A program made the position numbers and the translations under genes. Source: Xanthomonas cissicola (GTDB taxonomy: Bacteria; Pseudomonadota; Gammaproteobacteria; Xanthomonadales; Xanthomonadaceae). From it: a stretch of 64,000 nucleotides of DNA. Shown here piece after piece: positions 2,639-3,407 of the stretch; the first letter of the stretch is position 1, and each line of letters opens with the position of its first letter. The notes below the pieces were generated by a model that made no database searches, was not told the origin of the DNA, and worked only from the letters and a program-made list of their open reading frames with translations. The stretch is from contig NZ_VZPL01000007.1 in the NCBI RefSeq assembly GCF_008801575.1, positions 1 through 64,000 of the forward strand. The letters run 5' to 3'.

Positions 2639-3407
2639 AGCCGGACCTCCACGCGCAGCACCCGGCCCGGTGCGGCATACAGCGCCACGCTGCCGCCATT
2701 GCCGGCCAACAGGTCCAGCAGCGGCAGCATCGGCGCCATTGCATTGCCGGCGATGTGGCGCGACAGCGCGCCATCGCCGGGCGAGGGAGCGCCGTCGTCC
2801 AGATGTGCGTGCAGCTGCGGCTTGCCGGCCTGGCCGGGCGTGCCCAGCACCAATGCGCTACCCAGCAGCCCCAGGCTGGGGGCGACACGCCCTAGCGGCC
2901 CGACCGAACGGGCGTCGTAGCTGGCCAGCAGCACGGCCTGCGCGCCGGCAGCGCGCTGCACCAGCGCTTCCAGCAGGCCCTGCGCGAAGCTACCCAGGCT
3001 GGCGCTCATCGCCGTGGCCGGGGTCATCGCGCCGGCGCCGATGGTCCAGTAGCCGGCTGCGGCGTTGTGTACCGAGTTGTGGAACTTCGTTGGCGAAATC
3101 GCCAACGGGTCGCTGGCCAGCGTGGTGCACATATAGTCGGAGATGGCCAGATCGCCGTAAGTAGAGGTAAAGATCGACGGCAGGCTGGCCGGATCGCGGC
3201 CGGCGGCGCCACAGGCGGCCAGCGCAGCTTCCAGCGACACGGCCACCGTGTCCGGCGCGCGGCGGACACGGTGGCGGCCAGCAGCTGCGGCGCCGGGCGG
3301 GCGGGGGTTTCCTGCAGCGCGCCGCCGCGTGCGAAGGCGCTGGCAGCGTCCCAGTTGGGCAGCCCTTGGGTCCAGAAGCCGATCCCTTCGATGGTCGCGG
3401 CCAGCAT
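2635..3407 (-). pseudogene. Ketosynthase-like (chain-length-factor-like) protein, frameshifted
   Basis: Two reading frames together make one beta-ketoacyl-synthase-like N-terminal domain protein (the PF13723 type found in aryl-polyene clusters). The first frame starts at 3407 with MLAATIEGIGFWTQGLPNWD and runs to APQLLAAT near 3285. The second continues as RRAPDTVAVSLEAALAAC and includes SPTKFHNSVHNAAAGYWTI. The spliced length is 773 nt, one short of a multiple of three, so the net change is -1 (or +2). The switch falls at a perfect inverted repeat (3242-3275). The start shares one base with the stop of the ketosynthase gene (TGATG), and the 3' end overlaps the glycosyltransferase by ATGA. 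As written, translation fails after about 45 residues. Loss of this partner would be expected to impair xanthomonadin synthesis. A sequencing error is the alternative, but it would not readily create a perfect palindrome. Confidence 0.85.
3242..3275. repeat. Perfect 13-bp inverted repeat at the frameshift point
   Basis: Arms 3242-3254 and 3263-3275 are exactly complementary and flank an 8-nt loop (3255-3262). On the coding strand the right-hand part still encodes the expected RAPDTVA. The left arm occupies the place where related proteins carry an Arg-rich stretch (expected roughly AT-E-RRR-APD). The sequence therefore looks as if the left side was rewritten as a copy of the right side. Confidence 0.85.

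What the first reader, a model, noticed from the sequence alone, without database searches (positions are those of the whole stretch)
3242..3275. Pigment ketosynthase-like gene broken by what looks like a templated quasipalindrome mutation
The reading frame switches exactly inside a perfect 13-bp inverted repeat with an 8-nt loop. Downstream sequence still encodes the conserved RAPDTVA. Upstream, where relatives carry an Arg-rich ATERRRAPD-like stretch, the DNA is now the exact complement of the downstream arm. Replication template switching that 'corrects' an imperfect hairpin into a perfect one produces just this scar and a -1 change. It would inactivate one xanthomonadin polyketide component.
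Basis: partly seen in the sequence, partly recalled or inferred. Interest (0 to 1): 0.75.

Follow-up and report, generated by a model that had tools for sequence, protein, structure and literature searches.

The report
Pigment gene broken by hairpin-templated mutation
In this Xanthomonas genome a gene for the yellow pigment is out of frame because one side of a small DNA hairpin seems to have been overwritten with the mirror copy of the other side, a known kind of copying error that may have left the strain without its pigment.

Summary
A perfect 13-bp inverted repeat with an 8-nt loop lies at 3242-3275, inside an out-of-frame gene at 2635-3407 (minus strand). The gene is the chain-length-factor partner (ApeC/ORF16 type, PF13723) of the pigment ketosynthase, not a ketosynthase itself. 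In 29 of 29 aligned relatives the 3242-3254 arm is kept apart from point changes, while none has the window's 3263-3275 arm. In 34 of 34 relatives the match length is +1 modulo 3 against the window. Both gene parts share one frame in 109 of 109 fetched relatives' loci (84 distinct sequences). In the aligned window, 3263 is the only block with at least four changes that equals the reverse complement of nearby DNA; reverse-only and complement-only controls give none in the window. A template switch between hairpin arms is by far the best account, though the imperfect repeat in relatives is weak (short anchors, pairing only modestly above shuffles). No second copy was found, and it is the only pigment gene found split. 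Deleting the Lysobacter counterpart abolishes pigment, so a white strain is expected but untested. Reads were not available. It is a clean new case of a known mutation class, at a gene not among the pigment lesions I found in print.

The parts
3242..3254 (+). arm of the inverted repeat that is shared with relatives (inferred template arm)
   Evidence: identical in 15 of 29 relatives, point differences in the rest
3255..3262 (+). 8-nt loop between the arms
3263..3275 (+). overwritten arm: exact reverse complement of 3242-3254, found in no aligned relative
   Evidence: identical in 0 of 29 relatives; 4 window-private columns at 3265-3271; the only templated block changed in the window in the scan
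2635..3407 (-). broken gene for the aryl-polyene chain-length factor (ApeC / Lysobacter ORF16 type, PF13723)
   Evidence: Pfam PF13723 E 8.3e-20 for the downstream part; PDB chain 6qsp_B E 2.8e-10; split in two frames here, in one frame in 109 of 109 loci of relatives
3024..3407 (-). frame read from the original start: 127 aa, about the first 45 native, then out of frame to a stop at 3024
   Evidence: (residues 1-46 of the relative's protein in one frame, 49-256 in another)
2635..3240 (-). downstream part still encoding the conserved remainder, not in frame with the start
3407..4633 (-). partner beta-ketoacyl synthase, open reading frame
   Evidence: PF00109/PF02801, NF006618 above its cut-off; one frame
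1817..2638 (-). family 2 glycosyltransferase whose start overlaps the stop of the broken gene
   Evidence: PF00535; overlap
198..1820 (-). FAD-dependent halogenase-like protein, last gene of this run in the window
   Evidence: PF04820/PF01494; one frame

Best explanation
A single template switch between the two arms of a small quasipalindrome changed this gene. At the same codons relatives carry a weak imperfect inverted repeat, with short matching anchors at its outer and inner ends. In this lineage a replicating polymerase left its template, copied a short stretch from the opposite arm (3242-3254) and returned. The other arm (3263-3275) became its exact complement, several bases changed at once, and the net length fell by one. 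Shown: the perfect repeat here and not in relatives, the clustered lineage-private change, the frame shift, no second copy found, the other pigment genes compared lying in one frame. Inferred: that it happened in one replication event, that the product is inactive (127 aa, only about the first 45 native; the two GTG codons at the palindrome are doubtful restarts), that the overlapping downstream genes may be translated less, and that the strain makes little or no xanthomonadin.
For:: alignment of 29 relatives, block change in one arm; 15 window-private columns in 2241, 4 of them within 3265-3271, at most 2 in any other 10 nt; with 13-nt blocks and 4 or more changes, the reverse-complement scan finds one block changed in the window, at 3263, against each of two reference genomes; reverse-only and complement-only controls find 0 in the window; the hairpin folds at -20.6 kcal/mol (z -4.0) on the + strand; outer 4 bp of the repeat paired in 25 of 29 relatives, inner 3 bp in 22 of 29; match lengths of 34 of 34 relatives are +1 modulo 3 against the window; both parts in one frame in 109 of 109 loci; within the pigment genes compared only this one is split; no other PF13723 match in the genome. 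The mechanism is described for E. coli (PMC7202029, passages). Deletion of Lysobacter ORF16 abolished pigment (PMC3691225, abstract and passages).
Against: No reads: an assembly or library artefact at a hairpin cannot be excluded. One genome of this species only. Strain colour unknown. The imperfect repeat of relatives is weak: total pairing 9.5 of 13 against 7.9 in shuffles, with a median of 9% of shuffles doing as well, and the hairpins of three relatives fold no better than shuffles (z -0.4 to -0.7). The 13-mer also occurs at two other places in the genome (C11, C99). In the reference genome G016 three blocks changed in the relative meet the same criterion, so such blocks also arise elsewhere.
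Confidence: 0.85

Rival explanations
1. Sequencing or assembly artefact: a hairpin-derived chimeric read or an error at a GC-rich hairpin entered the consensus.
For: Draft assembly in 314 contigs; no reads available; hairpins are known trouble spots (recalled).
Against: Frames elsewhere are mostly clean: 32 of 33 genes called in G016 read in one frame in the window, 33 of 35 in the reverse comparison (that set did not hold the broken gene). Of the three exceptions two are unmatched starts; the third, window 4654-5085, is a frame difference to G016, and there G030 agrees with the window. A random error would not make a whole block the exact complement of the neighbouring arm.
Confidence: 0.09
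2. Ordinary independent mutations (substitutions plus a one-base loss) that happen to make a perfect palindrome.
For: Point differences occur nearby in the relatives, and part of the pairing was there by chance-like similarity.
Against: 4 private columns in 7 nt against 11 in the other roughly 2200 columns, never more than 2 per 10 nt elsewhere, and the new bases match the other arm throughout. The two composition controls give no such block in the window.
Confidence: 0.03
3. Short patch copied from another place in the genome, not from the neighbouring arm.
For: The 13-mer has two further exact copies in the genome.
Against: The backwards-read control pattern also has a match (1). The DNA search with the whole gene found no other place. 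The neighbouring arm lies 8 nt away.
Confidence: 0.02
4. The hairpin is a functional element, for example a programmed frameshift, and full-length protein is still made.
For: A stable stem-loop sits exactly at the frame change.
Against: No fetched relative has this repeat or the frame change, so it is not a conserved signal.
Confidence: 0.01

Closest known systems
Quasipalindrome-associated template-switch mutation (Ripley 1982 model, thyA hotspot and lacZ QP reporters in E. coli, all as given in PMC7202029)
   Same: inverted repeat made perfect, several changes at once, frame change, one arm kept
   Different: natural allele seen only by comparison; the imperfect repeat in relatives is weak; the replication step was not observed
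Lysobacter enzymogenes ORF16 / ApeC chain-length factor of aryl-polyene clusters (PMC3691225; PDB 6QSP in PMC8358021)
   Same: half-size ketosynthase-like protein encoded directly after its ketosynthase, followed by a family 2 glycosyltransferase gene and a halogenase-like gene
   Different: here the reading frame is interrupted
White xanthomonads in print: X. citri pv. viticola (4-nt deletion in a 143-aa pigment gene, PMC10667641) and X. axonopodis pv. manihotis (frameshift in a 95-aa dehydratase gene, PMC3838355)
   Same: one frame change in the pigment cluster with most of the cluster intact
   Different: other genes: frames of matching size and place are open here, and the mutation here is a templated block

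Membership tests
quasipalindrome template-switch mutation | related unchanged copies have an imperfect inverted repeat at the site | tested here: inconclusive
   outer 4 bp paired in 25 of 29 relatives, inner 3 bp in 22 of 29; total pairing 8-10 of 13, mean 9.5 against 7.9 in shuffles; folds of three relatives no better than shuffles
quasipalindrome template-switch mutation | the changed copy has a perfect or more perfect repeat and the new bases match the opposite arm | tested here: met
   13 of 13; single templated block changed in the window
quasipalindrome template-switch mutation | one arm stays as in relatives | tested here: met
   3242-3254 identical in 15 of 29 and with point changes in the rest; 3263-3275 identical in 0 of 29
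quasipalindrome template-switch mutation | arises in one replication event | not testable with these tools
   needs mutation assays or a strain series
aryl-polyene chain-length factor (ApeC/ORF16) | Ketoacyl-synt_2 domain and similarity to solved ApeC | tested here: met
   PF13723 71.7 bits, cut-off 25; 6qsp_B E 2.8e-10
aryl-polyene chain-length factor (ApeC/ORF16) | encoded directly next to its ketosynthase | tested here: met
   stop and start share one base; ketosynthase families
aryl-polyene chain-length factor (ApeC/ORF16) | complete reading frame | tested here: not met
   split in two frames: a broken copy of the family's gene
white (xanthomonadin-negative) Xanthomonas | colonies without yellow pigment | not testable with these tools
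   strain and phenotype unknown

The most novel reading that the evidence does not exclude
The codons of this pigment gene keep short inverted-repeat anchors in most of the genus, so the site may be a built-in mutational hotspot at which white, pigment-free variants arise repeatedly in one step: a partly predictable route to loss of the genus's defining trait.
Probability: 0.06. Interest if true: 0.6.

Novelty: new member of a known kind. Interest (0 to 1): 0.38.

Why it matters
It is a well-resolved natural candidate for a template-switch mutation in a bacterium, with the unchanged state visible in dozens of relatives, and it points to one lesion that would explain loss of the yellow pigment that names the genus. 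Such block changes are easily miscounted as several independent mutations.

Tried and rejected
Considered and rejected: independent mutations, conserved functional hairpin, generally poor assembly, second gene copy. G027 was a poor frame reference: its ketosynthase and chain-length factor read as one frame and other genes are split, probably sequence errors, so G016, G008 and G030 were used; G027 was kept as one of two references in the block scan. The first block scan missed the target through its segmentation and counted self-palindromes; one search replaced it. In one search the reverse-only control gave 0 in the window at every setting and 1 in the relative G016 at the 11-nt setting. The ketosynthase rows were read out of frame and are not used. 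The gene set did not contain the broken gene; one search did and flagged it. Five loci have perfect repeats with arms of 8-10 within about 120 nt (L006 and L035, which are the same X. prunicola place, L075, L078, L093), none of them this repeat. The other window palindrome with many differences (42070-42099) has single changes on both arms and in the loop and is not a templated block. I could not name the strain: its own record may be left out of the named search. X. citri/X. cissicola is a guess, because the nearest named relatives are X. euvesicatoria, X. phaseoli and X. axonopodis; that X. cissicola is non-pigmented is recalled, and searches did not show it. It showed the relatives' repeat to be weaker than I had written, so I lowered the hotspot reading from 0.10 to 0.06 and the main account from 0.87 to 0.85, and shifted the rivals slightly.

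Full report
What is there. The window's 3242-3275 holds a perfect 13-bp inverted repeat with an 8-nt loop. It lies inside a minus-strand gene at 2635-3407. From its ATG at 3407 the frame runs 127 aa to a stop at 3024. The conserved remainder (2635-3240) lies in a different frame and matches PF13723 and chain 6qsp_B of the Protein Data Bank; PMC8358021 (passages) names 6QSP as ApeO-ApeC of X. doucetiae, a ketosynthase with its chain-length factor. The gene before it is a ketosynthase. After it come a family 2 glycosyltransferase and a halogenase-like flavoprotein. Stops and starts of neighbours overlap. This is the arrangement of ORF17, ORF16, ORF15 and halogenase genes described in PMC3691225 (abstract and passages), where deletion of ORF16 abolished the yellow pigment of Lysobacter.

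Relatives. All 35 of 35 genus genomes searched, the own one included, match 2635-3420. Loci were returned for 29 relatives; five more (G011, G013, G017, G019, G024) were seen only as table rows. In 34 of 34 relatives the match length is +1 modulo 3 against the stretch of the window it covers (worked out from the rows). In the alignment of 29 the 3242-3254 arm is shared apart from point changes and the 3263-3275 arm differs in a short block; the extracted stretches were 212 nt in 27 and 213 in 2, against 211 in the window. The two parts of the gene were searched apart in 109 loci of relatives: in 109 of 109 both lie in one open frame. The 109 include places fetched twice and hold 84 distinct sequences of the downstream part. 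None has this repeat.

Is it more than chance. Across 2241 columns and 29 relatives the window has 15 private columns; 4 are at 3265, 3266, 3268 and 3271, and no other 10-nt stretch has more than 2. A scan of the alignments of the window with G016 and G027 looked for 13-nt blocks with at least four differences that equal the reverse complement of DNA within 80 nt. It finds one changed in the window, at 3263, with either reference. Reverse-only and complement-only controls find none in the window; direct repeats give 3 and 1. For blocks changed in the relative it finds 3 in G016 and 0 in G027, so such blocks also arise elsewhere. Folded as DNA, the window's hairpin has -20.6 kcal/mol (z -4.0) on the + strand and -17.4 (z -3.2) on the - strand.

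The state in relatives. Pairing between the two arms is 8-10 of 13 in the 29 relatives, mean 9.5 against 7.9 for shuffled arms, with a median of 9% of shuffles reaching the observed value. The outer 4 bp pair in 25 of 29 and the inner 3 bp in 22 of 29. Three relatives fold at -11.6 to -13.3 kcal/mol, no better than shuffles (z -0.4 to -0.7); two of them (L004, L007) show the same outer stem, L003 does not. So anchors for a template switch are there, but the quasipalindrome before the change was weak.

Interpretation. A hairpin made perfect, one arm having become the copy of the other with a net loss of one base, is the signature of a quasipalindrome template switch. That mechanism is described for E. 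coli in PMC7202029 (passages) and, for homogenisation of repeat arms in yeast genes, in PMC8604942 (abstract and passages). I consider it very likely; the replication step itself is inferred.

Consequence. The genome has no other PF13723 match. Genes called mechanically in three relatives (18 in L142, 15 in L143, 9 in L144; not all belong to the pigment cluster) were sought in contigs C94, C35 and C7 of the own genome. The chain-length factor, held only in the L142 set, was the only pigment gene split between frames. Outside the pigment genes as I judge them, one called frame (L143:13788-15704) gave two pieces, one in L143 gave no match, and some matched without their first residues. Frames that I take by size and place to be the genes broken in X. 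axonopodis pv. manihotis (95 aa; PMC3838355, passages) and X. citri pv. viticola (143 aa there, about 149 here; PMC10667641, passages) are open here. So this would be a separate route to the white state. The downstream part shows no excess of amino-acid changes: 23 synonymous and 7 non-synonymous codons differ from L003, against 19 and 12 between L003 and L004. That suggests a recent event. PMC10667641 also states that the pigment protects from photodamage and is not required for virulence. Colour and strain identity are not known.

In print. Searches of the held open-access library, of which I read passages of some papers only, showed pigment-gene lesions in other genes but no report of this one or of a natural template-switch lesion in a xanthomonadin gene. 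Most subscription papers are not held.

Noticed in passing
L131:6633-7469 (own contig C94, outside the window): A 217-bp tandem repeat, four copies, over the start of the MMPL-type exporter gene (three copies in G027). 217 is not a multiple of three, so copy number could alter what is fused to the start.
   Followed up: no
window 21665-21947; L112:19077-19405: A dispersed repeat of about 330 bp with many copies in the own genome (93 matches to the query, most of them to this repeat). Contig C94, which I take to precede the window, carries a partial copy near its end (C94:11113-11250).
   Followed up: no
L112/L113 (G027, same place as X. phaseoli CP094243.1): Ketosynthase and chain-length factor in one fused frame, halogenase-like gene and ketoreductase split: probably sequence errors in that record.
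   Followed up: partly
4654-5085: The small gene on the + strand differs in frame from G016, while G030 agrees with the window: the change seems to lie in G016.
   Followed up: partly
42070-42099: A perfect 11-bp inverted repeat with seven substitutions against each of two relatives, spread over arms and loop; not a single templated block.
   Followed up: partly
G016:C10:1-75000: Three blocks changed in the relative also look templated by nearby reverse-complement DNA.
   Followed up: no
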